Source of the DNA: Nocardioides sp. Arc9.136
GTDB taxonomy: Bacteria > Actinomycetota > Actinomycetes > Propionibacteriales > Nocardioidaceae
Assembly: GCF_030506255.1 (NCBI RefSeq)
Contig: NZ_CP113431.1
Coordinates: 2,854,001-2,918,000 of the forward strand
Reading direction: 5' to 3'
Length of the DNA stretch: 64,000 bases
Shown: positions 3,387 through 43,846 of the stretch, piece by piece
How positions within the stretch are numbered: position 1 is the stretch's first letter
Layout of the letters: each line of letters opens with the position of its first letter
Position numbers and translations under genes: made by a program
Notes under the pieces: model-generated
What the model saw: only the letters and a program-made list of their open reading frames with translations
Told to the model about the DNA's origin: nothing
The model's database searches: none

Positions 3387-4052
3387 TCAGTTCGCTGGGC
3401 CGTCTTCGAAGTCAAGCGGGGGGAGCGTGTCGTACACGCCGGGCTCGGTACGGAGGAAGGCCAAAGACCGCGCGTTCACGTGGGTGGCCACCCGACGGAT
3501 GGTTGCCTTCGGGAGCTCGAAGTCCTCGCCTTCCGGTTTGGGCTTGATCGAAGCCATCAAGTACTCGCTCGCCGTCAGAAGATCGCCCGACAGACGCTTG
3601 GATTGCCGAGCCGCCTTGGCTTCCACCACGGTTATCTCGCTGTACAGGTCGGCGAGCATCTCGCCCCACTCGGCGTTCGTTCGACTCGCGTGGCTGCGGA
3701 GCCGCACGTGTGATGTGAGCGCGTGCAAGCGGGCCACTGCCTCCCGCAACTCCGTACTCGCAATCAATGCGCGCTCGTGCGCGCGGGCTTCACTCGACAG
3801 CTCCCGTTCATGCGCCAGCGCTGCACGAGAGATCTGCATCTCGTGCTCAAACTGGGTGGCTTGCTGCTGCCGAGCGTGCTTAAGCGTTCTTGCGAACTGC
3901 CAGCGCTGCACCAGCAGAGTGGCAACTACTGCAAGGCCGCCAATGACGCCCCCAGCAAATCCATCGAGCCCGTACTGCAACCACCAGTCGCCCGTGAAGA
4001 AGCCGGGCGTCGACTGGCGTGCCGGTTCTAGGGGCTGGGTTGAGACCACCAT
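3387..4052 (-). CDS. Membrane-anchored coiled-coil protein, moron candidate
   Basis: 221 aa on the strand opposite to its neighbours. One transmembrane helix lies near residues 20-45 (GGVIGGLAVVATLLV). It is followed by a long charged helical stretch rich in Ala/Glu/His/Arg, probably coiled coil, and a soluble C-terminal helical domain. The ATG at 4052 is chosen because the residues upstream are low-complexity. Base composition is visibly less GC-rich than flanking genes, which suggests separate acquisition. A single cytoplasmic coiled-coil domain on a membrane anchor, expressed from a lone reverse gene, fits a moron. Superinfection exclusion is possible but unproven; no family recognised. 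Confidence 0.7.
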   Translation of the reverse strand: MVVSTQPLEPARQSTPGFFTGDWWLQYGLDGFAGGVIGGLAVVATLLVQRWQFARTLKHARQQQATQFEHEMQISRAALAHERELSSEARAHERALIASTELREAVARLHALTSHVRLRSHASRTNAEWGEMLADLYSEITVVEAKAARQSKRLSGDLLTASEYLMASIKPKPEGEDFELPKATIRRVATHVNARSLAFLRTEPGVYDTLPPLDFEDGPAN

Positions 4053-4133
4053 CCGCAACGTCACGGCCGGGACCGTACGCGGTCGCTCCGACAACGTCGC
4101 GCAATCCGCCCACGCCGTCGGCGGCGGCCGGCC

Positions 4134-4259
4134 GTGACATCCCTGCGCGCCTGGCTCGCCGACGTCCTCACCGGCCCCGGCTGCCCCTACCCCGCCTGCG
4201 GCCACCGCGCCCGCGGCCACCGCGCCCTCGCCCGTCACATGGAACGGACCCACCCATGA
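4134..4259 (+). CDS. 41-aa C2H2 zinc-finger micro-protein
   Basis: A short GTG-initiated gene whose second half reads as a near-classical zinc finger: CPYPAC (Cys-x4-Cys), then 12 residues, then HMERTH (His-x4-His). The N-terminal MTSLRAWLADVLTG is amphipathic. Its TGA overlaps the ATG of the RusA-like gene in an ATGA junction, the same coupling used throughout this operon, which supports it being real. Comparable tiny zinc proteins are common in actinophage replication modules. Function is unknown; DNA binding is an inference. Confidence 0.6.
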   Translation: MTSLRAWLADVLTGPGCPYPACGHRARGHRALARHMERTHP

Positions 4260-4738
4260 CCACCACCGCCATCCCCGGACGCCTCGGCATCCGCGTCCTC
4301 GGCCTCCCCATCCCCCAAGGCTCCAAGACCGCCGTCACCCGCAAGGGCCGACCCGCGCTCATCGACGCCAACGCCGCCACCCTCGCCCCCTGGCGCGACC
4401 AGGTGAAGCTCGTCGCCGAGGACACCTGCCGCTACCACGACACCATCACCGGCCCCGTCCGCGTCTGGGTCCGATTCACCTTCGAACGGCCCCCCTCCCA
4501 CTACCGCACCGGCCGCAACGCCCACCTGCTCAAGGACAGCGCCCCCCGCTACCCCGGCCGCGCATGCGGCGACGTCGACAAGCTCCAGCGCGCCGTCTTC
4601 GACGCCCTCACCGACGCCGCCGTCTGGGCCGACGACACCCAGGTCGTCGACGTCCGCGCCCGCAAGTTCTACGCCAGCGAGGACGAGGTCGCCCTCCCCC
4701 AGGCCGGCGTCGACATCGTCATCGAGGAGATCGCCTGA
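4256..4738 (+). CDS. rusA: RusA-like Holliday junction resolvase
   Basis: 160 aa, close to the usual RusA length. The diagnostic region is CGDVDKLQRAVFDALTDAAV followed by WADDTQVV, with the conserved aspartates that bind metal and the DxDK motif. The N-terminus (VLGLPIPQGSKTA) matches the beta strand with the SK element of the family. RusA cuts four-way junctions symmetrically and in phages clears recombination intermediates before packaging. The ATG at 4256 gives an ATGA overlap with the zinc micro-protein; the frame upstream is low-complexity. Confidence 0.88.
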   Translation: MTTTAIPGRLGIRVLGLPIPQGSKTAVTRKGRPALIDANAATLAPWRDQVKLVAEDTCRYHDTITGPVRVWVRFTFERPPSHYRTGRNAHLLKDSAPRYPGRACGDVDKLQRAVFDALTDAAVWADDTQVVDVRARKFYASEDEVALPQAGVDIVIEEIA

Positions 4739-4932
4739 TGGCCACCAAGCTCGCCCAGGTCCGCGTCACCGCCGTCGCTGCCGGCACAGGCCACCTCATC
4801 ACCTGCAGCCAGTGCGCGCTCTCCGAGACCCGCGGCCTCCGCTCCGAGGCCGACCAGCTCGCGGTCGACCACCAACGCAGCCACGTTCGCTCCACCGCAG
4901 CCAGCCAGCACGACGGGTTGGCTCTCCGATGA
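4738..4932 (+). CDS. 64-aa zinc-motif protein
   Basis: Small protein with CSQC near residues 22-25 and HQRSH near residue 48, a C2H2-like arrangement separated by a helix (RGLRSEADQLAVD). It overlaps RusA by one base (TGATG) and the methyltransferase by four (ATGA), so it is locked into the operon. It is the second short zinc-finger-like gene within 1 kb. No function can be assigned; a DNA-binding accessory role in replication or regulation is an inference. Confidence 0.6.
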   Translation: MATKLAQVRVTAVAAGTGHLITCSQCALSETRGLRSEADQLAVDHQRSHVRSTAASQHDGLALR

Positions 4933-6752
4933 CGCTCACCATCACCGACCTCTTCTGTGGCGGCGGCGGCTCCTCGACCGGCGCGATCCAGGTGCCCGGC
5001 GTCGAGATCCGCATCGCCGCGAACCACTGGCAGCTCGCCGTCGACGTCCACAACCGCAACCACCCCGACGCCGACCACGCCGCGGTCGACCTCCACGAGG
5101 AAGACCCCCGCTACTTCCCCCGCACCGACATCCTCTGGGCCTCCCCCGAGTGCACGAAGTGGTCCCAGGCCTCGGGCGGGAAGTACGCCTCGGTCTCCGT
5201 CGAGGCAAACCTGCTCGACCTGCTCGACCCCGAGCTCGTCGACGAAGACCCGGAGACCGCGATCGTCCAGCGCTCCCGGCTCCTGATGTTCGACGTGCTC
5301 CGGTTCGCCGAGCACCACCGCTACGCCGCGATGGTCATCGAGAACGTCGTCGACATCGCCACGAACCCGAAGTACGCCGAGGCGTGGACGCTGTGGAAGA
5401 AGAGCCTGCGGAACCTCGGCTACGACTTCCGGGTCGTCTCGCTGAACTCGATGCACGCCCAGGCGCACGGCGACCCGGCGCCGCAGTCCCGCGACCGGCT
5501 CTACATCGTGTGCTGGCTCCGCGGCAACCGCGCGCCGAACATCGACGCCGTCCTCCGCCCGCTCGCCTGGTGCCCCACCTGCACCGAGGTCGTCGAGTCG
5601 CAGCAGGCATGGAAGAACGCCCGCACCGTCGGCAAGTACCGCTCGCAGTACGTCTACGTCCACGGCACCTGCGGCACCACCGTCGAGCCCGGCTACCTCC
5701 CGGCCGCGGCCGCCATCGACTGGTCGTTGGCCGGCACCCGGATCGGCGACCGAGCGAAGCCGCTCGCGGACAAGACCCGCCGCCGGATCGCGGCCGGGAT
5801 CGCGCGGTACTGGTCGCCGTTCCACATGGATTCCGGCGGTAACCAGTACGACGCCGCCGACCCGAAGCACCCCTCGTTCAGCGACCCGAACGCCTACTAC
5901 CGCACCTGGTCGACCCACGACGTCCTGCGGACGCTCCACACGATGGAGTCGAAGGCGCTCGTCGTGCCGCTCGAGGGTCGCGCCGGCGACCGGGTCAACA
6001 GCGCCGACCGGCCGCTCCGCACGCAGACCAGCCGACACCTCGACGCGCTCGCCGTCCCGCCGGCCTTCCTGCTCGACCGGCGCTTCGACTACCGCGTGCG
6101 CGGCATCGACGAGCCGGTCAGCACCCTGACGGCGAACGACACCAGCAAGGCCGTTGTCGGCGCACCACCGTTCATCGCCGAGCTCCGCGGCGGCGGTTCC
6201 GACGCCCGGCCGGCGGGCCATCCGCTGTCCACGGTCACCGCGTCCGGCAACCACCACGCGCTGATCCAGGCCAACAACCACTCAAACCGCGCTCACCCCG
6301 TCACGGAACCACTGCCGACGGCGACGACGGCGACCGGCGGGGGTGCGGCGCTGCTCGTGCCGTACTACGGCGCCAGCAAGTCCGCGCAGCCCGTCAACGA
6401 GCCGGTCGGCACCCTCACGACCGTCGACCGGTACGCGCTGATCCACCGCAACAACACCGGCGGCGCCGAGATGACCACGCCCGCGTCGGAGACGCTCCGC
6501 ACCCTCACCACCGCCGGTCACCAGTCGCTCATCACCCCCGGCGACATCGAGGCCGCCGCGGCGCAGGTCGACGACTGCCTGTTCCGGATGCTCGAGCCCC
6601 ACGAGGTCGCCGCCGGCATGGCGTTCCCCGCCGACTACGTCTGGGACGGGACCCGACGCGAGCGCGTGAAGCTCGCGGGGAACGCGGTCACCCCGCCCGC
6701 CGCCCGCGATCTGATTGCGTGCGTCGCCGCGTCCCTGGGCGGTGCCGCATGA
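4929..6752 (+). CDS. C5 cytosine-type DNA methyltransferase with repeat-built target domain
   Basis: 607 aa. Motif I is TDLFCGGGGSSTGA; the catalytic loop is SPECTKWSQA (Cys75) rather than the common PPCQ; motif VI is IENVVD (Glu138-Asn139-Val140); motif VIII is QSRDRLYIV; motif X is KLAGNAVTPPAARD. It should methylate C5 of cytosine using AdoMet, probably protecting phage DNA from restriction. Between about residues 358 and 530, where the target-recognition part lies, there are six spaced copies of a P-L/V-x-T-x-T motif. No partner restriction enzyme is seen nearby. Confidence 0.88.
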   Translation: MTLTITDLFCGGGGSSTGAIQVPGVEIRIAANHWQLAVDVHNRNHPDADHAAVDLHEEDPRYFPRTDILWASPECTKWSQASGGKYASVSVEANLLDLLDPELVDEDPETAIVQRSRLLMFDVLRFAEHHRYAAMVIENVVDIATNPKYAEAWTLWKKSLRNLGYDFRVVSLNSMHAQAHGDPAPQSRDRLYIVCWLRGNRAPNIDAVLRPLAWCPTCTEVVESQQAWKNARTVGKYRSQYVYVHGTCGTTVEPGYLPAAAAIDWSLAGTRIGDRAKPLADKTRRRIAAGIARYWSPFHMDSGGNQYDAADPKHPSFSDPNAYYRTWSTHDVLRTLHTMESKALVVPLEGRAGDRVNSADRPLRTQTSRHLDALAVPPAFLLDRRFDYRVRGIDEPVSTLTANDTSKAVVGAPPFIAELRGGGSDARPAGHPLSTVTASGNHHALIQANNHSNRAHPVTEPLPTATTATGGGAALLVPYYGASKSAQPVNEPVGTLTTVDRYALIHRNNTGGAEMTTPASETLRTLTTAGHQSLITPGDIEAAAAQVDDCLFRMLEPHEVAAGMAFPADYVWDGTRRERVKLAGNAVTPPAARDLIACVAASLGGAA

Positions 6753-7132
6753 CGAGCTTCCGCGCCATCTGGCCCATCACCGACCTCCACGCCGGCATGG
6801 CCCAGCTCGTCGCGCAGGCCCGCCCAGAGCTGCCCCGGCTCCTCGCTCAAGCACACGCTCGTCCGACAGGCATCGGCCGTTTCACCGTCGCAGCCTCCGC
6901 CCACGTACCCGGATCGGGCCGCGTCACCGAGTGGGTCCTCCTCTACGAGTGCCCCGCACGCCCCGCACCCGTGCGCGTCGTCCCCACGAACTACGCCGCA
7001 GCGTCCAGCAAGGGCGTCGACGCCGCGGCGGAACCCACGTCGGCTGCCGGGACGGAAGGGGAAGCCGCCCGGCAGCCGGCCACCACCGCCCACCCACGCA
7101 CCGCCACCTCGACAGGAGACAACGCCGCATGA
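6749..7132 (+). CDS. Hypothetical early protein
   Basis: 127 aa, ATG overlapping the methyltransferase stop (ATGA). The N-terminal 75 residues look folded (FRAIWPITDLHAGMAQLVAQ, then a beta-rich stretch with WVLLYECPARPAPV). The remainder is Ala/Thr/Pro-rich and probably disordered. No family recognised. Its place between the methyltransferase and the acidic protein gives only operon membership as context. Confidence 0.6.
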   Translation: MTSFRAIWPITDLHAGMAQLVAQARPELPRLLAQAHARPTGIGRFTVAASAHVPGSGRVTEWVLLYECPARPAPVRVVPTNYAAASSKGVDAAAEPTSAAGTEGEAARQPATTAHPRTATSTGDNAA

Positions 7133-7776
7133 CGACCACCGCCACCATCAAGGCCAAGGGCTGCAAGAACACCGGCATCACCGAGGACATCGCAGCCGTC
7201 CTCCACGACAACCTCGGCAAGACCATCGTCGCCGTCGTCGAGCTCACCGCCGATGCCCGCTCCGAGAACCGCGACGGCGAGGAGAAGGTCCAGCTCTCCA
7301 TCGGTCTCATCGAGGTCGCCCCCGACGGCATGGCTTCCGAGCACGTCCGAGAGCTCATGCGGTCCTTCCACTACGAGCGCCGCCTCGCCGACGACGGCCC
7401 CACACTTCACGGCGAAGGCGACTCGCCCGAGCCGAAGGTCGCCGACGTCCTCGCCGCCGGCGCCCGCTTCCGCCCACACCCCTACCTCGCCTCCGGCCTC
7501 GCCGTCGACGACAACGCGGCCTGCGACGTGTGCGGTCAGCGCGAGCCGGCCGCCGTCCACTCCACCCAGCAGATGCTCGAGGAGCCCGACCAGGACCCGG
7601 CGGACAACGACGGGGACACGGACGACGAGGCGGACGACGACACCGACCTCGACGAGGACACCGCGACGGCCGACGACGACCCGGACGAGGACACCAACAG
7701 CGACGAGGACGGCGAGGTAGACCCCACCCACCTCCACCTCGCCTCCCCCTTCACCACCCCCGGCCCAGCCGCCTGA
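7129..7776 (+). CDS. Hypothetical protein with highly acidic C-terminus
   Basis: 215 aa preceded by an AGGAG-type ribosome site (GACAGGAGAC) and overlapping the previous gene by ATGA. Residues 1-125 look globular (KGCKNTGITEDIAAVL, IVAVVELTADA, VQLSIGLIEVAPDG) and end in a CDVCGQ metal-like motif. Residues 145-195 are almost entirely Asp/Glu/Thr. Acidic tails of this kind occur on single-strand DNA-binding and DNA-mimic proteins, but no OB-fold signature can be confirmed by eye. It directly precedes the helicase-like gene. Confidence 0.65.
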   Translation: MTTTATIKAKGCKNTGITEDIAAVLHDNLGKTIVAVVELTADARSENRDGEEKVQLSIGLIEVAPDGMASEHVRELMRSFHYERRLADDGPTLHGEGDSPEPKVADVLAAGARFRPHPYLASGLAVDDNAACDVCGQREPAAVHSTQQMLEEPDQDPADNDGDTDDEADDDTDLDEDTATADDDPDEDTNSDEDGEVDPTHLHLASPFTTPGPAA

Positions 7777-7969
7777 GACCAGCGCCCGGGGAGTCAACGC
7801 GGCCCGCCAGACCACCGCGAAGGACGCCACCCCGGACCCCAAGCCGGGACCCGCTGCACCTTTCCAGCGAGGCGTACCTGCTCCCCGGGCGCACCCCAGC
7901 ACCACCCACCAGGCACCACCCGGCGCCACCGCAGACGCCCGGGACACACCACCTCGAGGGACCAGCCAC
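7777..7969 (+). other. Non-coding gap before the helicase-like gene
   Basis: 193 bases without a supported gene. It is Pro-codon-like, rich in CCACC and CCCGG, and holds no recognisable promoter, ribosome site or strong hairpin. It may be an untranslated leader. Confidence 0.4.
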
Positions 7970-9562
7970 GTGACGTACGACGGACCACCATCCCGTCACC
8001 TGCACCCCGTCGACGACCAGGCGCCGTTCGACCCCGACTACGACCGCCCCAACATCGGACGCCGGCCACCCCAAGACCAGGCAGCCGAACAGGCCATCCT
8101 CGCCGCGCTCCTCGCCACCCCAGACCCCGACGGCACCCACCCCGGCGACCGCCTCCGCCAGATCATCGACGCCGCCGACTTCTACTGGCCCGTCCACGCC
8201 ACCATCTGGGAAACCTGGCACGACCTCCACGCCGCCCAAGGCGTCCCACCCGACGCTGTCACCCTCAACGCCGCCATCCTCAAGACCCGCGACCAGGCAG
8301 CCATCCGCGCCGTCGCAGACCTCGTCACCACCACCGCGAACCCCGCCCTCGCCGAGCACTACGCCACGATCGTCCGCGACCTCGCACGACTCCGCGTCGT
8401 CTCCGACCTCGCCACCGGCCTCAACCAGATCGTCACCAACGCCGACGCCACCCAGGTCGACGCCTACCTCGGCGAAGCCCTCCAACGGCTCGACGAGACC
8501 GCCATGCGGTTCGGGCCCACCACGCACACCACCTCCACCGGCCTCGCCGACCTCACCTGGGTCCTCGGCGGCCAACCACCCGCAGCCGTCCCACCCGTCT
8601 GGTGCCGCCGCGCCGACGGCACCGCCCTCTTCTACGCCGGCCGCCACAACGGAGTCTTCGGAGACCCCGAAGGCGGCAAGACCTGGCTCGCCCAAGTCGC
8701 CGGCGTCGAAGCCCTCCACGCCGGCCAGACGTTCGCCATGATCGACGTCGACCACAACGGCCAAGACCACACCGCAGCCCGGCTCCTCCTCCTCGGCGCC
8801 CGCCCCGACCAGATCGCCGACCCCGACCGGTTCCGCTACTACGAACCCGAGGACTCCGACCAGCTCCGAGCCGCCGTCACCGAGATCACCCGCCTCGCGC
8901 CCGCCGTCGTCGTCATCGACTCCCTCGGCGAAGTTCTCCCCATGCTCGGCGTGAAGTCCGTCGACAACGACGAGATCACAGCCGCGCTCCGCACCATCGT
9001 CATGCCACCCGCCAAGGCCGGGTCCTGCGTCATCTCCGTCGACCACCTCCCCAAGTCCGCCGAGGCCCGCACCACCGGCTACGCCATCGGCGGCACGGCC
9101 AAGAAGCGCGCCGTCGACGGCGCCTACCTCCGCGTCGAAGCCCGCCAGCAGCCCACCCCCGGCGGCATCGGCCGCATCACCCTCCGCATCGAGAAGGACC
9201 GCACCGGCGAGCTCCGCAAGTCCTCCGGCGGCGGCTACGCCGGCACCTTCACCCTCGACTCCACCCAGCCCCACGTCACCACCTGGTCCATCGGCCGCGA
9301 CGAGATCCCGAAGAACGACGACGGCACGTTCCGCAAGACCGTCCTCATGGAGCGCATCTCCAAGTACATCGAGGACCACGACCAGTGCACCCAGACCGAG
9401 ATCGTCGACGCCGTCGGCTCGAAGAAGGAATGGGTCCGCGACGCCATCAACGTCCTCGTCTCTGAGGGCTACGTCGCCCGCATCGACGGCGCCCGCCGAG
9501 CCAAGCTCCACCACTCCATCGCCCCGTACCGACAGACGGAGGACGACCATGTCCAGGCCTGA
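7970..9562 (+). CDS. DnaB/RepA-like replicative helicase ATPase
   Basis: 530 aa, GTG start. The N-terminal part (about 35-175: PQDQAAEQAILAALLA, DFYWPVHATIWETW) matches the DnaB N-terminal helical domain. A RecA-type ATPase follows with Walker A GDPEGGKT (about 231-238) and Walker B AVVVIDSLG (about 310-318). The last 70 residues (CTQTEIVDAVGSKKEWVRDAI) form a winged-helix-like domain. The combination fits phage helicase or initiator proteins that load at an origin. The iteron-like cluster immediately downstream is a plausible target. Confidence 0.8.
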   Translation: MTYDGPPSRHLHPVDDQAPFDPDYDRPNIGRRPPQDQAAEQAILAALLATPDPDGTHPGDRLRQIIDAADFYWPVHATIWETWHDLHAAQGVPPDAVTLNAAILKTRDQAAIRAVADLVTTTANPALAEHYATIVRDLARLRVVSDLATGLNQIVTNADATQVDAYLGEALQRLDETAMRFGPTTHTTSTGLADLTWVLGGQPPAAVPPVWCRRADGTALFYAGRHNGVFGDPEGGKTWLAQVAGVEALHAGQTFAMIDVDHNGQDHTAARLLLLGARPDQIADPDRFRYYEPEDSDQLRAAVTEITRLAPAVVVIDSLGEVLPMLGVKSVDNDEITAALRTIVMPPAKAGSCVISVDHLPKSAEARTTGYAIGGTAKKRAVDGAYLRVEARQQPTPGGIGRITLRIEKDRTGELRKSSGGGYAGTFTLDSTQPHVTTWSIGRDEIPKNDDGTFRKTVLMERISKYIEDHDQCTQTEIVDAVGSKKEWVRDAINVLVSEGYVARIDGARRAKLHHSIAPYRQTEDDHVQA

Positions 9563-9809
9563 CCACACCCCCACCCCGAGTGGGTCCCGCAGTGGGTCCC
9601 GAGTGGGTCCCGGAACCGGTCCCGGGCAACCGCGAGATGAGTGGGTCCCCGGTCCCCCCTCCCTTCGGGGGGACCCACTCAACGAGCCCCCCACCCACTG
9701 CGTCCCCCCAGTCGGTCCCACACCGGTCCGAACGCCCCCCCGACGAGGCTTCGCCAACAGCGCCACCCGACCCCTCGCCACCCACCTCCCCCTCGGCTGC
9801 GCCCGATGA
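9549..9809 (+). CDS. Short Pro/Arg-rich reading frame spanning the repeat cluster
   Basis: 86 codons starting with an ATG inside the last 14 bases of the helicase gene and ending in an ATGA overlap with the next gene. The coupling arrangement is that of a real gene. The product, however, is low-complexity (GSRSGSRVGPGTGPG) because the DNA beneath it is a repeat array. It may be a small basic protein or simply a translational bridge across an origin. Confidence 0.35.
   Translation: MSRPDHTPTPSGSRSGSRVGPGTGPGQPRDEWVPGPPSLRGDPLNEPPTHCVPPVGPTPVRTPPRRGFANSATRPLATHLPLGCAR
9580..9678 (+). repeat. GTGGGTCCC iteron-like cluster with nested hairpin
   Basis: GTGGGTCCC occurs at 9580, 9592, 9603 and 9641 and inverted at 9670. 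The fourth copy and the inverted copy form an outer stem (GAGTGGGTCC with GGACCCACTC). An inner perfect 9-bp stem (GGTCCCCCC with GGGGGGACC) surrounds TCCCTTC. Spacing of the first three copies is 11-12 bases, about one helical turn. Lying directly after the helicase/initiator-like gene, this is a candidate replication origin; a terminator is the alternative. Confidence 0.5.
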
Positions 9810-10429
9810 CCGGGCCCATGGCAGGGACCCCCGACGACGGGGGCCATGACAGCCGGTACTGCGGTGCCCCGAAGAAGCAGGGCGAGGGCACGTGCACCCG
9901 TCCGGCGGGGTGGGGTACGCCGCACCCGGGGATCGGCTGCTGCAAGCTGCACGGCGGGTCGACGCCGTCGCACATCGCTGCTGCGCAGACGAAGCAGGCG
10001 GACGCGAAGGTGCGGGAGCTGTGGGCCGGGTTGGACCAGGCGGTCCCGGTGAAAGACCCGGTGGACGCGTTGGGTCGTCTCGCGGGTGCGCTCGAGCAGC
10101 TGGTCGACGAGGCCGGTTCGCGGGTCACCCAGTTGCGGAACGTGGCTGGTGGTGAGCACCTGACGCAGCTGCGTGCCGAGGTGGTGCTGTTCGAGCGGGC
10201 GTTGGGTCATCTCCGCCAGTTGCTGGTGGACATGGCCCGGTTGGGGATCGCCAGCCGGGCGGTGGAGCTGCAGCAGGGGCAGGCGGACCTGGTGCTCGGT
10301 GCGCTGCGTGCTGGTCTGGAGGCTGGTGGGTTGTCGACGGAGCAGCGGAACACGGTGCTGGGTGAGTTCCTGTCGGTGCTGCGTCGGTCGCAGGGTGCCG
10401 CGGTGGCGGGCGAGGTGGTGCCCTCGTGA
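9806..10429 (+). CDS. HGG-motif zinc protein, possible small terminase-like protein
   Basis: 207 aa. The N-terminal 50 residues hold a zinc pattern common in actinophage proteins: YCGAPKKQGEGTC, then AGWGTPHPGIGCCKLHGG. The rest is helical with alternating charge (KVRELWAGLDQAV, LRAEVVLFERALGHLRQLLVD), consistent with an oligomeric coiled-coil protein. Proteins with this motif and a helical body are often found near terminase genes and sometimes called small terminase or DNA-binding proteins. Here the large terminase is 5 kb away, so the assignment stays open. ATG chosen for its ATGA overlap. Confidence 0.6.
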   Translation: MTGPMAGTPDDGGHDSRYCGAPKKQGEGTCTRPAGWGTPHPGIGCCKLHGGSTPSHIAAAQTKQADAKVRELWAGLDQAVPVKDPVDALGRLAGALEQLVDEAGSRVTQLRNVAGGEHLTQLRAEVVLFERALGHLRQLLVDMARLGIASRAVELQQGQADLVLGALRAGLEAGGLSTEQRNTVLGEFLSVLRRSQGAAVAGEVVPS

Positions 10430-10433
10430 CGCG

Positions 10434-10823
10434 TCAGAGGTTGGACCGCTCGCGGCGTCGAAGGACAGCCGCGACCGCTGGGCGGGTCAGATTCATCGCG
10501 AAGCCGGTCCCGACACCCAGGAGCACCGACTGCGCCGGCGAGAGGGAGCCAGCAGCAACGGTCACTGTTAGCCCGACGATGATCAGCAGCGCGACGATCA
10601 AGCGCGTCACGCGCGTCTCCAAGGCCGCCGCTGGGTCGGCCAGGTACCGCTGCAAGCGGCGGTCGACCTTCTTCTGCAGCGCGACCCGGTACGCCGCTGG
10701 CAAGCGTCGGTGCCCGAGCAGGTCGAGCTCCTCCCGGATGGTCGCGCGTATCCAGCGCTCACGACCCCCGCGAGCAATGAGCGCAACGACCACCGCGCCA
10801 AGCGTCGTCAACACCGTCTGCAT
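10434..10823 (-). CDS. Small membrane protein, moron candidate (TM-helix-TM-TM layout)
   Basis: 129 aa, reverse strand, convergent with the upstream operon (stop codons 4 bases apart). N-terminal hydrophobic helix (VLTTLGAVVVALIA), about 55 charged helical residues with an EELDLLGHRRLP segment, then two hydrophobic helices (LIVALLIIVGLTVTVAA and a Gly-rich one). The layout is shared with the reverse gene at 12,373-12,834. The ATG at 10823 is preferred because upstream residues are not protein-like. Composition is less GC-rich than neighbours. Function unknown. Confidence 0.65.
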   Translation of the reverse strand: MQTVLTTLGAVVVALIARGGRERWIRATIREELDLLGHRRLPAAYRVALQKKVDRRLQRYLADPAAALETRVTRLIVALLIIVGLTVTVAAGSLSPAQSVLLGVGTGFAMNLTRPAVAAVLRRRERSNL

Positions 10824-10877
10824 CACGGGCCCGGACCATAACCGCGCCCACCGACAGTCACTCAGCGAGGAGATCCG

Positions 10878-11126
10878 ATGACCAACCTGCACATGCCTGC
10901 AACCGCGGTGGCCGAGCACCTCGCCGACGGCGCGCGCCACGGCAAGGTGCACCGGATCCGCTCCGGCCGGCCCGCCGCCCCTCGGGGGCGGAACCGCCGG
11001 CAGTACCGGGTCGCCTGCGGCGGCATCGTGCGCGCCGGCTTCCCGGTCCGCCTCGTTGAGCTCGACGGGCTGTGCCGGTCGTGCTGGCCAGACACCGAGC
11101 TCGACCGTGCTGGGGTGGCCCGGTGA
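10878..11126 (+). CDS. Small basic Cys-containing protein
   Basis: 82 aa, ATG preceded by a GAGGAG ribosome site. Basic in the middle (RPAAPRGRNRRQYRV), with a CGG...LCRSCW cysteine set that may bind zinc. It opens a short rightward operon with the ASCH-domain gene. The family is not recognised; similar short basic Zn proteins are frequent in actinophages. Confidence 0.6.
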   Translation: MTNLHMPATAVAEHLADGARHGKVHRIRSGRPAAPRGRNRRQYRVACGGIVRAGFPVRLVELDGLCRSCWPDTELDRAGVAR

Positions 11127-11337
11127 CCGCTGGTCAGAAGATCCAGCCGGTGACGGACTCGAGGAGTTCGCGGTACATGACGGTCACCTCCCACGCGCGC
11201 GCGAGGAGGAACTGGATCCGGACTCGAGAAGGTAGTTGCACGCACCTTGGCGGCATTCGCGGCCGGAATTACAGGACGACCCCTGCAACTTTCTCGAGTC
11301 GGGAGCACCGCGACCTCCCCGCGATGGGGGTCTCCCG
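11127..11337 (+). other. Intergenic region with long inverted repeat
   Basis: No convincing gene. A near-perfect inverted repeat has arms at 11,221-11,240 (GACTCGAGAA...AGTTGCA) and 11,284-11,300 (TGCAACTTTCTCGAGTC), differing by a three-base insertion, around a 43-base centre. The arms contain the XhoI-like palindrome CTCGAG. It precedes the ASCH gene and may be an operator pair or a structured leader. Confidence 0.5.
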
Positions 11338-12344: not shown

Positions 12345-12372
12345 CGCCCGAGCTCGCTGCGGCGCGTTCCGC

Positions 12373-12834: not shown

Positions 12835-12930
12835 GCGAAGCGACCGTAGTCGCCGGGCTCCCGAGCCGCAGGCGATCTGGCGCAGGCGCCAACGCAGGAA
12901 CGTCGTGACTCACGCACCAGGGAGGACAGC

Positions 12931-14451
12931 ATGACCGACCACCACACCACCGACCGTCGGCCGAAGGCCTGCCACTACGACCCCGACACCAAGACCCGCC
13001 TCATCACCACCACCGACGGCGACACCGAACCCTGCCCCGCCGACCACTGCGTCGACTGCACCCGCAACCACACCCAGCCCGGCCAACTCGTCTGCCCCGA
13101 CTGCGTCGGCGCCGTCCGCACCGACCTCGAAGACATCCGCTTCCACGCCCGCCACCTCCGCTGGCACGCCGCCCGCGGCAACGGCCTCGCCGTCCCGTCC
13201 GCCCGCATCCCCGGCGGCGACGCCCTCGTCGCCATGGCCCGCGCCGGCGCCGGCTACGACGACCTCCACACCCGCTTCGGCACCCCCAAGGACGGCCACC
13301 GCGAGGACCTCCTCGCCGAAGACCACCCCGACGACGACATCGTCCCCGTCCTGCTCCCCCTCCTCGGCTGGGAGCACCAGTGGCGCACCTACTTCGGCCA
13401 CACCCCGCGGGCCACCCGCCGGTCCCCGGTCACCGCGATCACCCACTACCTCGGCGACCACCTCACCGCGATGGCCCAGGCCAAGGACGGCCCCGACTGG
13501 CCGTCGTTCAGCTTCGACATGCAGGCGCTGCGCCGCCAGCTCGAGGGGATCCTCCACGACGAGCAGGAGCCGCAGCGTGGTGTGCCGTGCTTCGAGTGCG
13601 GGGAGCGGCTGGTCCGCCGGTGGGGCAAGCCGCAGCCGTGCCGCCACGCCACCCCGGGCCGGGTCGCGCTCGGCCAGGTGCGCGCCGGGGCCCGCGCCGC
13701 CCAAGCCCGCCTCGAGGTGTACGCGACGTACCCCGAGCTGGGGCCCCCGACGTACGCCGACCAGCGTGCCGCCCGCCGAGTGCCGACCGAGGCCGAGGAG
13801 GCCGCGGCCCGGGTCCCCTGCGACGCCTGCGCAACGTCGAAGACCGGGCAGGGCGGCATCGAGGACCCCTCGGTCGGGCAGTCGTGGGAGTGCCTGGGGT
13901 GCCGCAAGCAGTACGACCCCGGCGAGTACGCGAACGCCGTACGCCGCCACCTGCTGACCGCCGGCCCGTCGGGTGACGGGTGGACGCACATCGCGATGGC
14001 GGCGGAGGCGGCGACCACGATGACGCAGGTCCCGATCGCGCCGTCGACGGTGCGGCGGTGGATGGACCGCGGGCAGGTGCTGTCGGTGTGCCGGTGGGCG
14101 GTGTCGGTTGACGGCGCCCGTGAGGTGCCGGCGGCACCCGGGCCGGCCCGTGCTGGCCGGCCGGGGCACGCCGCGTTGGTGGAGGCGTTCGCTGGTCGTG
14201 TGCATGGGTCGCCGGGTCTGCGGCTGGTGTTCTGGCCGTCGGTGTCGGAGCAGGCGGCGCGGCTGGTGGAGCGGGCCGAGCAGGCGGCCGCGGAGCGGGC
14301 CCGGGAGGAGCTGCAGCGGCGGCGGCTGCGGGAGGCGGTCGACGCCGGTGAGCCTGCGGCCGAGGCTGGGAAGCGGCTGGGGATCCACCCGGCGCGGGTG
14401 GCGAAGTTCGTCGACGAGTGGGAAGCATCCGACCGGAAGGCGAGTGCATGA
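12931..14451 (+). CDS. Zinc-ribbon and helix-turn-helix DNA-binding protein upstream of terminase
   Basis: 506 aa with a clear GGGAGGA ribosome site. Cysteine pairs appear at the start (CVDC, CPDC), centrally (CFEC) and near 290-325 (CDAC, CLGC), giving two or three probable zinc ribbons. Near 355-385 is a helix-turn-helix-like segment (APSTVRRWMDRGQV). The C-terminal helices (QAARLVERAEQAAAERARE) end in a second possible HTH (AAEAGKRLGIHPARVAKFV). Large proteins like this precede terminase in many actinophages; a role as regulator or packaging recognition factor is inferred. ATGA overlap with the next gene. Confidence 0.65.
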   Translation: MTDHHTTDRRPKACHYDPDTKTRLITTTDGDTEPCPADHCVDCTRNHTQPGQLVCPDCVGAVRTDLEDIRFHARHLRWHAARGNGLAVPSARIPGGDALVAMARAGAGYDDLHTRFGTPKDGHREDLLAEDHPDDDIVPVLLPLLGWEHQWRTYFGHTPRATRRSPVTAITHYLGDHLTAMAQAKDGPDWPSFSFDMQALRRQLEGILHDEQEPQRGVPCFECGERLVRRWGKPQPCRHATPGRVALGQVRAGARAAQARLEVYATYPELGPPTYADQRAARRVPTEAEEAAARVPCDACATSKTGQGGIEDPSVGQSWECLGCRKQYDPGEYANAVRRHLLTAGPSGDGWTHIAMAAEAATTMTQVPIAPSTVRRWMDRGQVLSVCRWAVSVDGAREVPAAPGPARAGRPGHAALVEAFAGRVHGSPGLRLVFWPSVSEQAARLVERAEQAAAERAREELQRRRLREAVDAGEPAAEAGKRLGIHPARVAKFVDEWEASDRKASA

Positions 14452-15176
14452 CGCCGACCCCCGGCATCATGGCGCCCGTGACCGACGTACCTCCCCGCGG
14501 CGACACGCGCCTTCTCGTCGGCCTGCTCCTCACGGGCATGGTCGTGTTCACGGTCGCGATCACCACCGGGAGGCTGCTGGGCTCGGAACCCGGCTCCCTC
14601 GCCGACTGGGTCGCGGCCATGTCGACCTTCGCAGCGCTTCTCGCGGCGGCGTACGCCGCCATCCAGACCCGTCGCGTGGTGAACCTCGAGCGAGCCCGGG
14701 ATGAAGAACGCGCTGAGGAGGGCCGCCGCGCGCAGGCTTCTCAGGTCGCTGTGTGGGCGTACGACGCCATCATGTGGCGCGGGCCGCACGTGACGGTCAG
14801 GATGCCGTCGACGGGGCCGCAGCAGATGGAAGACGGCATCTCAGCGCCCGACTACATCCCGATCCGCGTGCTCAACGCGTCGCCACTACCGGTCTACCAC
14901 CTGAGCATCGAGTTCTACTTCGGCGTCCCCCGCCAGGGACCGATGGTCCTGGGCGCGACCTACGAACACCGCACTCCGGTGCTCGGGGACATCGACCTAG
15001 GCGATCTCGCCACGCCCGATGTAGTCGCGTCCCTGGAGGCGACCCTGCGACGACTGCCTGGTCGCCACGATGAGCCTCGGCCCATGTCCGTGGGGTGGAC
15101 CTTCCTCGACAATCTCCGCGTGCGCTGGCGCTACGTCCCGGGCGGACAGTTGGAGCGCTACGACCCGACCAGCTGA
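14448..15176 (+). CDS. Membrane protein with coiled-coil and soluble C-terminal domain
   Basis: 242 aa. Two N-terminal hydrophobic helices (LLVGLLLTGMVVFTVAI; WVAAMSTFAALLAAAYAAI), then a charged coiled-coil stretch (RRVVNLERARDEERAEEGRR), then a beta-rich soluble domain of about 140 residues. Same general plan as the reverse gene at 3,387. It sits between the zinc/HTH protein and terminase, an unusual place for a membrane protein in a siphovirus, and is likely a moron. Start ATG overlaps the previous stop (ATGA). Confidence 0.7.
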   Translation: MTPTPGIMAPVTDVPPRGDTRLLVGLLLTGMVVFTVAITTGRLLGSEPGSLADWVAAMSTFAALLAAAYAAIQTRRVVNLERARDEERAEEGRRAQASQVAVWAYDAIMWRGPHVTVRMPSTGPQQMEDGISAPDYIPIRVLNASPLPVYHLSIEFYFGVPRQGPMVLGATYEHRTPVLGDIDLGDLATPDVVASLEATLRRLPGRHDEPRPMSVGWTFLDNLRVRWRYVPGGQLERYDPTS

Positions 15177-15200
15177 CGGTCACACGTCCCATCTCGGACG

Positions 15201-15218
15201 GTGGCAGTTGCGTGCCAC
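15201..15218. promoter_or_regulatory. Perfect inverted repeat upstream of terminase
   Basis: GTGGCA and TGCCAC flank a six-base centre in the 121-base gap before the terminase gene. It could be an operator for the late operon or the terminator of the gene ending at 15,176. No T-run follows. Confidence 0.3.
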
Positions 15219-15297
15219 TCGATTCTGTGTCATCTTCAACCCCAGACCTCGCGTACCCGAAACCGGCCGCGGGGTCTTCGCACGCCCGGGGGTGAAC

Positions 15298-38227: not shown

Positions 38228-38229
38228 GC

Positions 38230-40380
38230 TCAGCGAGAAGGCAGTGCCCCCGAACGCCGCAGCCCCTCGAGAAGCGCCGGCTCGATGTGATGCACGTAGG
38301 TCGTCGTCGCGTGCACGCGGTCCCGCATCGTGACCATGTCCCCAACGAAGGCCGGGCAGAAGTCGGCTTCGCTGCAGAACCAGGGCTGGCTGTCGATCGC
38401 GGACGCGCCTGTCCCCTCCTCGGCGACGAATGTCAACGCTGCGCGGCTGTCCGCCCAGTCGTCGGGGACCGTCGTCGCACACGCAGCTGGGTTGCCCCCC
38501 GGCCGGTAGCAGGTGACAGGCTCGTGACCACCCGGTGGCGGCAGCAGCAGAGCGACGTGATCCACGTACCCGGTCAGGTCCTCAAGGATGGGCCGCAGCG
38601 CCAGGGCCTGGTCGCGCGGACTCTGGGGTTCGCCGTCACTCGCCCGCGGCAGCGTGACAGCCTGGTTCGTGACAATCAGCAGCTCGGGGCGCAACTTCTT
38701 GACCTCGGCTACGACGTCGGCCGTGTGTTCGGCACAGCCGGCTTCAAGCCGACTGTCGGCGTTGTCGTAGACAACCGGGCTGAAGGCGCACCCGTAGGTG
38801 CCAGCGAAGCGCATCCGCCAGCCGTCGAGGTCGTCCTGGACGATGGACTCGAAAGCCTCCCCGTAGACCATCGAGGTTGAATCCCCTGCGACCACGATGG
38901 TCCGCCGTGCGTCCGGGTCGCCGGCAAGGCACTCGTCGGTCGGGGCCATCTCGATCTGCCCGCACCGGGAGATGAGGGCGGACTCGCCGTTTGCCTCGAG
39001 CTCCTGCTCCATCGACGGTTGCAAGTCCGGCCACCTAGTCGCTGCGAGTGCTGCACCGATCTCGCGCTGCAGCCTCGCTGCCTGCGGCGGCAGTTCCTGC
39101 GCTACGGGCTCGTCCAGCGTCCGATTGATGACCTGGTACCGGTCTCGGATCTCGTCTTGATTGCCCGGCCACAGGGCCATTGCGGACAGGCCTAGGGCGA
39201 CGACGGTGGTGGTTGCTGCAAGCACGTGTACCGGGGTCGAGAAGAACCCGTCGGCAGTCGAGTCGGCAGCTCGGGCTTGCTCCGGTGACTTCTTCGGGGC
39301 CAGCCAGTTGGACTCCAGCACAGGTCGCTCGATGAAGCCGTAGAGCGCCATCGAGAGCCCGAGAATGAGCAGGACGCAGGCGATGTTGTAGTACCAACCT
39401 GCGTCACCGAGCGACGGTGCGAGCAACACGATGACCGGGAAGTGCACCAGGTAGACCGAGTACGAGATGTCGCCGACGAACACCGCCGGCCGCGAGGTCA
39501 AGACTACGTTCCAGGCTCGGGCGTCCGGCGAAACGGCTGCGATCACCAGCGCTGCGCCGAGGCATGGCAGAAGTGCGCCGGGCGCTGGGAACGTGGTGGT
39601 GTCGGTGATGACGAAGAGCGAGACGCCGATCGCCACCATGCCCGTCCACGACATCGCGGTCAGCACGACGGCGTTGCCGCGCATATAGGGCACCACACAC
39701 GCCATCAGCGCTCCGAGGCCCAGCTCCCACCCTCGGGTGACGGTGGAGAAGTAGGCGCCAGTCGGGTCGTCGGCGCTCTGCCCGAAGGCGACCCACAGCG
39801 AGGCTCCGACGAGGAGCGTCGACGCGGCCAGGACAACCACACGTCGCCGCTGCAAGGACGTCCGCGCTCCGGCTACCGCCGCGACGGCGAAGAGCGCCAG
39901 CGGCCAGACGACGTAGAACTGCTCTTCGACCGACAGCGACCAGTAGTGCTGCAGCGGCGACTCGCCCGCGCCGGCGAAGTAGTCAGTGCCAACCTCGGCG
40001 AAGTGCCAGTTCGCGAGGAACACGGCTGCCCACCACCCGTCCACGCCGACGTCATCGGCACGACTGCCGGTCAGGGCGATGTGGGCGAACACGATCGTCA
40101 CGACGATTGTGACCAGCGCCGCCGGGAAGAGTCGCCTGATCCGCCGGCGGTAGAAGTCCGCGATGAAGCGATGGAGACCGACCCCGCTGCGGCCGAGATC
40201 GCGGATCAGCAGCCCGGTGATGAGGTAGCCGGAGATGACGAAGAAGACGTCGACTCCGACGAAGCCTCCCGAGGGCCAGTCCGTGAGGTGGTTGGCGACA
40301 ACGGCCACAACGGCCACCATCCGCAGGCCCTGAATATCGAGGCGCTTGGAACCGTGGTCGCGGTGTCTGTGCGAGGCCAT
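38230..40380 (-). CDS. Membrane acyltransferase (AT3) with SGNH domain, lysogenic conversion candidate
   Basis: 716 aa, reverse strand, stop codon 2 bases from the fibre stop. N-terminal AT3 acyltransferase domain with about ten hydrophobic helices (LDIQGLRMVAVVAVVANHL; GGFVGVDVFFVISGYLITG). Periplasmic-side SGNH-like domain from about 450 with VVAGDSTSMVYGE (GDS nucleophile motif) and a late RDRVH providing the Asp-x-x-His pair. OatA-like proteins of this plan O-acetylate wall or surface glycans. The gene is visibly lower in GC than phage genes. It likely alters the host surface in the lysogen. Start ATG at 40380. Confidence 0.85.
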   Translation of the reverse strand: MASHRHRDHGSKRLDIQGLRMVAVVAVVANHLTDWPSGGFVGVDVFFVISGYLITGLLIRDLGRSGVGLHRFIADFYRRRIRRLFPAALVTIVVTIVFAHIALTGSRADDVGVDGWWAAVFLANWHFAEVGTDYFAGAGESPLQHYWSLSVEEQFYVVWPLALFAVAAVAGARTSLQRRRVVVLAASTLLVGASLWVAFGQSADDPTGAYFSTVTRGWELGLGALMACVVPYMRGNAVVLTAMSWTGMVAIGVSLFVITDTTTFPAPGALLPCLGAALVIAAVSPDARAWNVVLTSRPAVFVGDISYSVYLVHFPVIVLLAPSLGDAGWYYNIACVLLILGLSMALYGFIERPVLESNWLAPKKSPEQARAADSTADGFFSTPVHVLAATTTVVALGLSAMALWPGNQDEIRDRYQVINRTLDEPVAQELPPQAARLQREIGAALAATRWPDLQPSMEQELEANGESALISRCGQIEMAPTDECLAGDPDARRTIVVAGDSTSMVYGEAFESIVQDDLDGWRMRFAGTYGCAFSPVVYDNADSRLEAGCAEHTADVVAEVKKLRPELLIVTNQAVTLPRASDGEPQSPRDQALALRPILEDLTGYVDHVALLLPPPGGHEPVTCYRPGGNPAACATTVPDDWADSRAALTFVAEEGTGASAIDSQPWFCSEADFCPAFVGDMVTMRDRVHATTTYVHHIEPALLEGLRRSGALPSR

Positions 40381-41200: not shown

Positions 41201-41201
41201 C

Positions 41202-41573: not shown

Positions 41574-42290
41574 ATGACCTACCGCTACCTCACCCAGCTG
41601 GCCGGAGCCCTGCGCGCCGCCGACCTCAAGGTCGTCGAGGTGCCCGGCTGGAAGACCCGCGGCCGCCCCGCGTCGACCGGCGGCTTCGACCCCGTCGGCG
41701 TGCTCTGGCACCACACCGGCTCGAAAGACACCAACCCGAAGTCGATCGCCGACGACCGCGCCTACGCCGAGTGGCTCGCCGAGATCGGCCGCTCCGACCT
41801 GCCCGCCCCGCTGTGCCAGCTCTCGATCGGCCGCGACGGCACCGTCTACGTCTGCGCCGCCGGCCGCGGCAACCATGCCGGCACCGCCCGCGCCTCGGGC
41901 ACCGTCGCAGGCGGCGACGGGAACCAGCTCTACGTCGGGGTCGAGTGCCAGAACACCGGCTCCGAGGGCTGGAGCGACGCACAGCGCGACGCCATGGTCA
42001 CCACCGGCGCCGTGCTCGCCGAGCTGCTCCACACCAGCGCCCAGGCCCAGCGCGCGCACCGCGAGACCTCGGTGACCGGGAAGTGGGACCCGGGCCTGCT
42101 CGACATGGACGCCTTCCGCCGCGACGTCGCCGCGGAGCTCGTCACGAAGGAGCGGCCCGAGGAGCCGGACCCAGAGCCGACCCGCGTCGAGGAGATCCGC
42201 CAGCTGCTGCGCGAGGCCCTCAAGCACGCGAAGTCCGCGAAGCGCCGCCGTCGGCTCCAGGCCGCCCTCGACCGGCTGCCGAGCCGGTGA
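41574..42290 (+). CDS. Endolysin, N-acetylmuramoyl-L-alanine amidase (Amidase_2/PGRP)
   Basis: 238 aa. The zinc-binding amidase core shows LWHHTGS (His46/His47), QLSIGRDGTVYVCAAGRGNHAG and a late AHRETSVTGKWDPG with the second zinc His and catalytic Lys/Asp. It cuts the amide bond between MurNAc and L-Ala at the end of infection. No separate wall-binding domain is present; the C-terminal 55 residues are a basic helix (LKHAKSAKRRRRLQ) that may bind the wall or membrane. No signal peptide, so holin-dependent. Confidence 0.92.
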   Translation: MTYRYLTQLAGALRAADLKVVEVPGWKTRGRPASTGGFDPVGVLWHHTGSKDTNPKSIADDRAYAEWLAEIGRSDLPAPLCQLSIGRDGTVYVCAAGRGNHAGTARASGTVAGGDGNQLYVGVECQNTGSEGWSDAQRDAMVTTGAVLAELLHTSAQAQRAHRETSVTGKWDPGLLDMDAFRRDVAAELVTKERPEEPDPEPTRVEEIRQLLREALKHAKSAKRRRRLQAALDRLPSR

Positions 42291-43024: not shown

Positions 43025-43212
43025 ACCAGTCCATCCTCAACCTCGCGCTCTACATTCTCGGCGCCGGCTTCCTGCTCTGTCTCGGTGGGATCATCTGGCT
43101 CGCCGCGGCCGAGCCCGCCCGCTCGATCCCCGACGTGCTCGTCGGCACCACCGGGCTGATCGGTGGCGCGATCGTGGGGGTGCTGGTACCGACCAAGACA
43201 CCGCCTGCCTGA
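43021..43212 (+). CDS. Two-TM holin-like protein
   Basis: 63 aa, ATG overlapping the EEP gene stop (ATGA) after an AAGGAGA site. Hydrophobic helices at about 5-28 (LNLALYILGAGFLLCLGGIIWL) and 38-58 (VLVGTTGLIGGAIVGVLV). Size and topology fit class II holins. Last gene of the lysis cassette, followed by a strong hairpin. Confidence 0.68.
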   Translation: MNQSILNLALYILGAGFLLCLGGIIWLAAAEPARSIPDVLVGTTGLIGGAIVGVLVPTKTPPA

Positions 43213-43244
43213 CCGCCGCCTGCCTGACCGCCACCTCCCGGGCC

Positions 43245-43283
43245 GCCGCCCCGTCTCCGCTCACGCAGCGGGGGCGGGGCGGC
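43245..43283 (+). terminator. Late-operon terminator hairpin
   Basis: 16-bp stem (GCCGCCCCGTCTCCGC with GCGGGGGCGGGGCGGC, two G-U pairs) around TCACGCA, 33 bases after the last lysis gene. One of the strongest hairpins in the prophage and placed where late transcription should stop. Confidence 0.7.
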
Positions 43284-43330
43284 TTCGCCATTCCGCGCCA
43301 CGATCAGCGCGCGGCGCCTAATGTGCGCGC

Positions 43331-43846
43331 GTGGCACCCGATATTCCGTCGCGATGTACGCGCTGTGGACTCACTGTCGAGCAACCGGGCGGTATACGAG
43401 TCGAAAACTCGACAAACATCACCATCCATGGCGGGGGCGGTAACCCATGCCCTCGCTGCGGCGGACGAACTGAGTGGCTGCAGGGGACGTTCAACGTCCG
43501 CGACGGCGCCATCGAGATGCTCGCTGGTCCCCAGTGGAGCTGGGACATGGTGGAGGAACTACGGCTGACGCTTCGCCGGATTGTTGAGGAGTCCCCTGAA
43601 GACCCTCTATCACCAGTGGAAGCGCTGTCGTCGACCTTCGGGCAGCGCCTACGGGGCGTCACCGCAGGGTGGACGCGCGGCGACATCCTCGGACTCATCG
43701 GCGTGCTGCTCTGGGCAGTCGACTGGGCGGGGGTTCAACCATCCGACATTGCCGGTTGGCTCAGCGCGCTCCCGGAGCAGATTGCGTCGATCCTCGACGA
43801 AGCCGAGAAGAACGGCCCGCCAACGCCACCGCGGCCAGAGCGATGA
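43331..43846 (+). CDS. Zinc-ribbon accessory protein with C-terminal hydrophobic helix, moron candidate
   Basis: 171 aa, GTG start shortly after a TAATGT element that could be a -10 for a leaderless message. N-terminal zinc ribbon CTRCG...CPRCGG with an intervening GGIRVENSTNITIHGG turn-rich segment, a helical middle (WDMVEELRLTLRRIVEES) and a hydrophobic helix (DILGLIGVLLWAVDWAG) near 120-137. Less GC-rich than neighbours and outside the late operon, so probably expressed in the lysogen. A defence or exclusion role is possible; function unknown. Confidence 0.65.
   Translation: MAPDIPSRCTRCGLTVEQPGGIRVENSTNITIHGGGGNPCPRCGGRTEWLQGTFNVRDGAIEMLAGPQWSWDMVEELRLTLRRIVEESPEDPLSPVEALSSTFGQRLRGVTAGWTRGDILGLIGVLLWAVDWAGVQPSDIAGWLSALPEQIASILDEAEKNGPPTPPRPER

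What the first reader, a model, noticed from the sequence alone, without database searches (positions are those of the whole stretch)
3387..43846. Set of membrane-anchored single-gene insertions (morons) in the prophage
Genes at 3,387-4,052, 10,434-10,823 and 12,373-12,834 (reverse strand), and 14,448-15,176 and 43,331-43,846 (forward), are predicted membrane proteins that interrupt or flank phage operons, and several are visibly lower in GC. Two share a TM-helix-TM-TM layout; two share TM-coiled coil-soluble domain. None belongs to virion or lysis functions. Inference: they form a lysogen-expressed exclusion or host-modifying set.
Basis: partly seen in the sequence, partly recalled or inferred. 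Interest (0 to 1): 0.72.

Follow-up and report, generated by a model that had tools for sequence, protein, structure and literature searches.

The report
Prophage membrane genes on damage promoters
A dormant virus in a soil bacterium carries odd membrane-protein genes, and at least two of them, plus the predicted protease that would wake the virus, sit behind copies of the bacterium's own DNA-damage switch, which suggests that they turn on when DNA is damaged and not simply all the time.

Summary
The five ORFs are real accessory genes of a 51.7-kb prophage, probably in Nocardioides, but not one set. A, B and C lie antisense inside the early operon. B and C are homologous; A and D are unrelated. 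E is a zinc-ribbon-like protein with only a weak hydrophobic stretch. D overlaps the upstream stop codon and is an operon gene. In related prophages these slots hold interchangeable A- or B/C-type genes.

New: A, B, C and E each have a TANNNT -10 box 6-8 nt before a start codon (leaderless, self-standing); 1 of 51 other called prophage genes does. A and B also carry TGTCRGTG-N8-TANNNT, the published PafBC (RecA-independent DNA-damage) promoter; B matches perfectly. The genome encodes PafB and PafC and has the motif before recA-, uvrB-, uvrC-, polA- and radA-like genes. The prophage's ImmA-like protease, beside its putative repressor, has it, as do 7 of 9 phages fetched for an ImmA homologue, including CarolAnn and Clifton.

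So "lysogen-expressed set" becomes "independent cassettes, partly wired to host DNA damage". What the proteins do at the membrane is untested; exclusion remains a guess.

The parts
3387..4064 (-). Gene A: one TM plus coiled coil; family with WW..YGLDG N-terminus; leaderless GTG start at 4064
   Evidence: profile search matches 12 of 245 genomes
4072..4093 (-). RecA-NDp-like promoter of A: TGTCGGAG-N8-TACGGT, 7 of 8 block positions, 7 nt to GTG
10434..10826 (-). Gene B: TM-helix-TM-TM protein, homologous to C
10835..10856 (-). RecA-NDp promoter of B: TGTCGGTG-N8-TATGGT, 8 of 8, 8 nt to GTG; one of 7 exact sites in the genome
12373..12834 (-). Gene C: TM-helix-TM-TM protein; leaderless ATG
12843..12848 (-). 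-10 box TACGGT of C, 8 nt before ATG; no PafBC block (2 of 8)
14448..15176 (+). Gene D: two TM, helix, beta sandwich (weak model); start overlaps stop of 12931-14451 by 4 nt; no own -10 box
43331..43846 (+). Gene E: zinc-ribbon-like protein with a weak hydrophobic stretch; leaderless GTG; relative of Gordonia phage Bunker gp30
43319..43324 (+). -10 box TAATGT of E, 6 nt before GTG; no PafBC block (1 of 8)
43761..43949 (-). 62-aa leaderless ORF with hydrophobic stretches (by eye), convergent with E
44559..44825 (-). 88-aa leaderless ORF with RecA-NDp-like block, 6 of 8
45736..45894 (+). 52-aa leaderless ORF with RecA-NDp-like block, 6 of 8
45918..45939 (+). TGTCGGTG-N8-CAAGAT (imperfect -10) upstream of the DUF3263 gene 46001-46237
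38230..40320 (-). Acyltransferase-3/SGNH, antisense to the late operon: surface-modifying moron left out of the finding
46481..47386 (-). Tyrosine integrase
47469..47519 (.). 51-bp att core overlapping the end of tRNA-Val; exact copy at genome 2849760-2849810

Best explanation
A, B, C and E are single-gene cassettes, each with a -10 box placed so that transcription would begin at the start codon (leaderless), independent of the phage operons. A and B, two small ORFs near the integrase and the prophage ImmA-like protease carry in addition the PafBC (RecA-NDp) block. Proposed working: ssDNA arising in a damaged, induced or phage-attacked lysogen activates host PafBC; PafBC and sigma-A RNA polymerase transcribe these genes; ImmA inactivates the prophage repressor and induces the prophage without SOS, while A and B enter the membrane and act on the cell at that moment (blocking a competing phage, aborting infection or halting division). 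D is carried along in the early/packaging operon. Shown: positions, motifs, PafBC genes, motif before repair genes, conservation. Inferred: leaderless transcription, induction, repressor cleavage and every effect at the membrane. My 0.6 is for PafBC control of A and B; for exclusion as the effect I would say about 0.3.
For: -10 box 6-8 nt before a start: 4 of the 5 genes against 1 of 51 other called prophage genes and 1 of 15 host genes (Fisher 4 of 5 against 1 of 51, p=7e-5). A, B and C are the only such ORFs of 45 aa or more, on either strand, in the first 20 kb. The window has 31 TANNNT sites on both strands; 4 have 6 or more of 8 block positions, all at starts of leaderless prophage ORFs. 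Own genome: 7 exact sites; 82 with up to one mismatch against 3 for the pattern reversed (ten of the 82 are one repeat). Of 32 sites with intact TANNNT whose downstream genes I looked at, 17 precede repair, replication or proteasome genes by my reading: recA, dnaB, radA, tmk, ligD, xseA, nth, a DEDDh exonuclease, uvrC, uvrB, polA, dnaX, a DinG-type helicase, a RecB-type nuclease, sbcD, a dGTPase, a proteasome ATPase. PafB and PafC match solved PafBC, E 1.5e-60 and 3.4e-46. ImmA-like protease: 7 of 8 site in this prophage and in prophage L066; 7 of 9 fetched phages. Viral contigs: 55 stretches against 4 for the control. Leaderless B/C-family genes: 10 of 22 with 6 or more, against 1 of 29 leaderless host genes (p=4e-4).
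Against: C (2 of 8) and E (1 of 8) lack the block; D has neither element. In the A family only 1 of 12 leaderless members reaches 6 of 8, so PafBC control is not a fixed feature of the family. MinS1 has an ImmA relative but no site of 5 or more. Dulem virus 32 has none and Phistory has the block with TACGAA. In 4 of the 7 positive phages the site lies at or inside the annotated gene, so the annotated start must be wrong for my reading to hold. The motif was noticed on 14 of the 22 B/C genes; on the 8 others it is 3 of 8. Fifteen of the 32 own-genome sites precede other or no recognisable genes (gene B is one of these 15). No expression data; no terminators found at the genes. Only nine of 187 phage records were read.
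Confidence: 0.6

Rival explanations
1. One reading: constitutive lysogen-expressed exclusion or host-modifying genes. The -10 boxes serve the housekeeping sigma factor and the upstream block is incidental or only tunes it.
For: C and E have the -10 box without the block; A-family members are leaderless in 7 of 7 newly found cases but rarely have a strong block. Prophage-expressed membrane proteins with defence roles are known in mycobacteriophages and Gordonia phages (PMC7542560 and PMC6426606, passages read).
Against: B is one of only 7 exact RecA-NDp sites in the genome, and the four best window sites all fall on prophage leaderless ORFs.
Confidence: 0.25
2. Damage-induced growth or division arrest: A and B hold the cell during induction, comparable to DNA-damage-induced membrane division inhibitors of other bacteria (recalled, not from a call).
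For: Damage-type promoter and small membrane proteins.
Against: No family hit over a cut-off.
Confidence: 0.2
3. Lysis helpers: B and C are holin-like.
For: C has sub-threshold hits to GTA_holin_3TM, Holin-X and a PHROG holin.
Against: The Pfam hits are below cut-off and the PHROG E-value is 0.05; the endolysin is elsewhere (41574-42290); the genes are antisense to the early operon; homologues also occur in places with no recognised phage genes nearby, as far as I could read them.
Confidence: 0.06

Closest known systems
Morons / prophage-expressed defence genes of actinobacteriophages (Sbash 30/31, CarolAnn 43/44, Butters 30/31, Charlie)
   Same: Accessory membrane proteins expressed from the prophage, Sbash from its own promoter, Charlie as a single membrane protein (passages). 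CarolAnn 43/44 lies directly beside an ImmA homologue with an exact RecA-NDp site.
   Different: No sequence relation of A-D to any phage record was found by tblastn. Sbash, CarolAnn and Butters are two-gene systems; A-C are single and antisense; defence by A-E is untested.
PafBC / RecA-NDp regulon (Mycobacterium)
   Same: Same consensus tTGTCRgtg-8 nt-TannnT (PMC5656591, passage), PafBC present, repair genes carry it.
   Different: Here it also stands before prophage cargo and the ImmA-like protease. My searches showed no paper on that: 12, 299 (20 listed), 0 and 4 papers, of which I read passages of two and saw the rest only as listings.
ImmA/ImmR switch (ICEBs1 and relatives, recalled)
   Same: IrrE/M78-type protease gene directly downstream of an XRE-like putative repressor.
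   Different: The protease gene has its own damage-type promoter; the Pfam hit is just under cut-off (20.0 against 22).

Membership tests
Moron | Extra gene absent from close relatives, between phage genes | tested here: met
   No counterpart in the MinS1 annotation or by tblastn of phages; slots variable among related prophages
Moron | Own promoter | tested here: met
   -10 box at A, B, C, E (sequence only); not met for D
Moron | Own terminator | tested here: not met
   Two intrinsic-terminator-like sites at 3000-16000, 3.1 expected, neither at the genes
Moron | Expression in the lysogen | not testable with these tools
   No RNA data
PafBC regulon | RecA-NDp motif at the promoter | tested here: met
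   B 8 of 8, A 7 of 8; not met by C, D, E
PafBC regulon | Host has PafB and PafC | tested here: met
PafBC regulon | PafBC-dependent induction by DNA damage | not testable with these tools
   Needs expression data
Superinfection exclusion protein | Blocks phage infection when expressed | not testable with these tools
   No assay; no family hit over a cut-off
Holin | Family score over cut-off and place in the lysis cassette | tested here: not met

The most novel reading that the evidence does not exclude
Temperate actinobacteriophages have plugged their lysogeny switch (an ImmA-like protease beside the repressor) and membrane cargo into the host's ssDNA-sensing PafBC response, giving SOS-independent induction together with damage-timed membrane effectors; the window's prophage carries the fullest version seen here.
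Probability: 0.5. Interest if true: 0.88.

Novelty: new variant of a known kind. Interest (0 to 1): 0.72.

Why it matters
How prophages of PafBC-using actinobacteria sense damage is, as far as my searches reached, not explained through PafBC. A promoter motif that can be read from sequence, found in isolated phages such as Clifton and CarolAnn, makes this testable at once in Mycobacterium smegmatis and Gordonia, and it would place the expression of orphan membrane genes in the damage window, which bears on what they do.

Tried and rejected
Single-sequence searches of phages for A-D gave nothing, nor did a B homologue or a D homologue; viral-contig scans with D, C and E gave nothing; a plasmid search with a B homologue gave none. 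The generic sigma-70 scan found no promoter; it demands a TTGACA-like box. Structures were weak (C pLDDT 68, pTM 0.32; D 63, 0.46) and fold searches gave no match at E 0.001 or better; D's sandwich resembles Ig-like domains only loosely. Kinship of A and D was rejected. Holin was rejected. The idea that every leaderless cassette is PafBC-controlled was rejected (C, E).

Corrections to my notebook: one search calls the host Cellulomonas-like, which one search corrects; one search gives D 4 of 14 and one search gives B/C 9 of 13, but searches show 5 of 15 and 8 of 12; one search puts the small ORF of L121 in the C slot, but it lies between the ZNF and terminase genes. Of the 19 new B/C loci (L193-L211) I gave 14, and L195 and L198 fell out there because the matched frame held a stop. 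Rows L062 and L054 look like false hits and stay in the raw counts.
Full report
Setting. The window is G000:C1:2854001-2918000 of a 4.41-Mb genome. Relatives of the prophage lie in named Nocardioides and Pimelobacter genomes, so I take the host as Nocardioides (inference). A 51-bp sequence at the end of tRNA-Val, 47469-47519, recurs exactly at genome 2849760-2849810, which gives a prophage of about 51.7 kb whose left 4.2 kb lie outside the window. PHROG matches name exonuclease, RusA, helicase, terminase, portal, tape measure, endolysin and integrase.

Observation. The five ORFs are there. Their third-position GC is low: 0.77, 0.83, 0.86, 0.86 and 0.70 for A-E against a mean of 0.932 for 51 other called prophage genes. 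Their reality rests mainly on homologues: single-protein searches of 245 Nocardioidaceae genomes match in 5, 7, 7, 15 and 3 genomes for A, B, C, D and E, own genome included; profile searches raise this to 44 of 245 for B/C, 22 of them at E below 1e-6 and the rest weak, and to 12 of 245 for A.

Not one set. B and C are homologous (hhalign probability 97.3, 117 columns). A and D are not (9.6). D starts 4 nt inside the stop of the gene before it (here called ZNF, 12931-14451), and D homologues in the same place in related prophages L081-L084 and L092 also begin within about 20 nt of that stop, with starts chosen by me. E has cysteine pairs of a zinc-ribbon kind, a weak hydrophobic stretch (1.58), and a relative, gp30, in Gordonia phage Bunker (23.6% identity, E 3e-4) that lies between the tail/lysis genes and the integrase as E does.

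Slots. In L082 a B homologue stands antisense in the C slot; in L087 an A-type and a B-type gene stand antisense on either side of the counterpart of gene 9806-10429; in L086 and L065 an A-type gene stands antisense next to it. The related infectious phage MinS1 (portal 83% identical) has none of the five in its annotation or by tblastn and has a GIY-YIG nuclease in the D slot. An unannotated antisense leaderless ORF of 431 aa with ten hydrophobic segments is present in MinS1.

Leaderless starts. Searching in-frame starts from -60 to +30 for TANNNT 6-8 nt upstream gives 4 of 5 for A-E, 1 of 51 for other called prophage genes and 1 of 15 for host genes in the window (p=7e-5). Two further leaderless ORFs near the integrase were not among the 51 called genes. 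Homologues: A 2 of 4, B 5 of 6, C 4 of 6, E 2 of 2, D 5 of 15, and 0 of 4 for D rows in the terminase slot. In newly found homologues: A 7 of 7, B/C 8 of 12. Across 18 prophage and phage sequences, TANNNT sites with an antisense start lead to an ORF of 80 aa or more in 17 of 39 cases (odds 2.2 against other hexamer classes, p=0.016; one other class scores as high) and to one with a TM segment in 12 of 39 (odds 6.5, p=3e-6); some of the 17 are evident artefacts.

PafBC block. Aligning 28 of these promoters showed G-T-C-R-G at -15 to -11 of the -10 box. The published RecA-independent damage promoter is tTGTCRgtg-8 nt-TannnT (PMC5656591, passage), bound by PafBC (PMC6789036, passages), and PafBC is activated by ssDNA (PMC11804915, passages). 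B fits 8 of 8 positions, A 7, the ORFs at 45736 and 44825 6 each; C 2, E 1 and the ORF at 43949 2. Of 28 promoters 11 reach 6 of 8; among 197 TANNNT sites of the collected sequences, positives included and the window partly counted twice, 14 do (p=2e-5). Random 8-mers reach 6 in 0.98%. Of 31 TANNNT sites in the window only these four do.

Positive control. The own genome holds 7 exact sites and 82 with up to one mismatch, against 3 for the pattern reversed; ten of the 82 are copies of one repeat. Of the 7 exact sites one is B; five precede nth-, DEDDh-exonuclease-, uvrC-, recA- and dnaB-like genes and one is unclear. Over the 32 sites with intact TANNNT that I looked at, 17 precede repair, replication or proteasome genes and 15 do not; gene names are my reading of sequences. 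WYL search and PDB sequence search identify PafB and PafC side by side. [quoted passage not shown] venezuelae (PMC9380542, passage), so the motif cannot be assumed for all actinobacteria.

The switch. The prophage left arm holds an XRE-like gene 2850964-2851536 and, downstream on the same strand, a 139-aa HELVH protein, Pfam M78 20.0 bits against a cut-off of 22, with TGTCGGCG-N8-TACGGT 6 nt before its ATG. An independent prophage, L066, has a homologue (40% identical) with a 7 of 8 site. In phages 187 records hold a homologue. I fetched nine: CarolAnn, Sidious, Matteo, Clifton, phiGD17-1 and Wrigley have 8 of 8 and Dorito 7 of 8 with TANNNT; Phistory has the block with TACGAA; Dulem virus 32 has none. 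In Sidious, Dorito, Matteo and phiGD17-1 the site lies at or inside the annotated gene start. MinS1, not among the nine, has a homologue and no site of 5 or more. In viral contigs the exact TACGGT form before a start was found in 55 stretches against 4 for the block reversed, and six of the 55 lead into HExxH proteases, two of these with the same printed sequence; many of the lower-GC stretches among the 55 lead to no sizeable ORF and are probably chance.

Other cargo with the block. Small proteins in the C slot of L081 and L085 (7 of 8 each) and between ZNF and terminase in L121 (8 of 8), a second ORF in the C slot of L082 (8 of 8), and the D homologue of L092 (7 of 8, 25 nt upstream), all but the last antisense. 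The C slot thus has a damage-type promoter in three relatives even though window gene C lacks the block. Some sites of 6 or more in these loci stand before host-like or doubtful ORFs.

Strength and limits. Leaderless B/C genes reach 6 of 8 in 10 of 22 cases against 1 of 29 leaderless host genes (p=4e-4); 14 of the 22 were those on which I noticed the motif, and among the 8 others it is 3 of 8 (p about 0.03, worked by hand). For A it is 1 of 12, not different from the control at this cut, and 6 of 12 against 3 of 29 at 5 or more (p=0.01). Relatedness of homologues is not corrected for, and some sequences recur under two locus names. No expression evidence exists here, and I read the papers only as passages.

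Reading. The most economical account is a set of independently acquired, independently transcribed cassettes. Because PafBC senses ssDNA, they would be expressed when the host is damaged or perhaps invaded, at about the time of prophage induction. That replaces quiet lysogenic expression for A and B, leaves it open for C and E, and removes D from the group. What the proteins do in the membrane remains unknown from sequence; I give exclusion or abortive infection about 0.3.

Noticed in passing
L078 (MZ923504), whole record: Microcystis phage MinS1, published as a broad-range cyanophage, has a portal 83% identical to this prophage, GC 0.717 and integrases; the passages of its paper list Nocardioides among best hits. 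Its true host may be an actinobacterium in the culture.
   Followed up: partly
window 38230-40320: Acyltransferase-3/SGNH gene antisense between tail and lysis genes; MinS1 has an unannotated multi-TM antisense leaderless ORF at about the corresponding place.
   Followed up: partly
genome 2849453-2849719, just outside the left att copy, and window 44559-44825: Very similar 88-aa genes, both with RecA-NDp-like sites, one just outside and one inside the prophage; perhaps the trace of an earlier element at the same tRNA.
   Followed up: no
genome 2849886-2850485: Lipoprotein-like gene directly downstream of the ImmA-like gene at the left prophage end; possible further moron.
   Followed up: no
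L080, L081, L083-L086, L088, L089, L091, L094, downstream of the minor head gene: Small antisense ORFs of 52-60 aa, many with zinc-ribbon cysteines, behind a TAGCGT (in two TACGGT) -10 box.
   Followed up: no
window 45436-45633 and 44880-45341: HicA-like (below cut-off) and HTH_17 genes near the integrase; possible toxin-antitoxin or excision genes.
   Followed up: no
G076:C11:325084-328938: Three A-type genes in a row, all with TACGGT or TACCGT leaderless starts, next to a weak match to the ZNF gene.
   Followed up: partly
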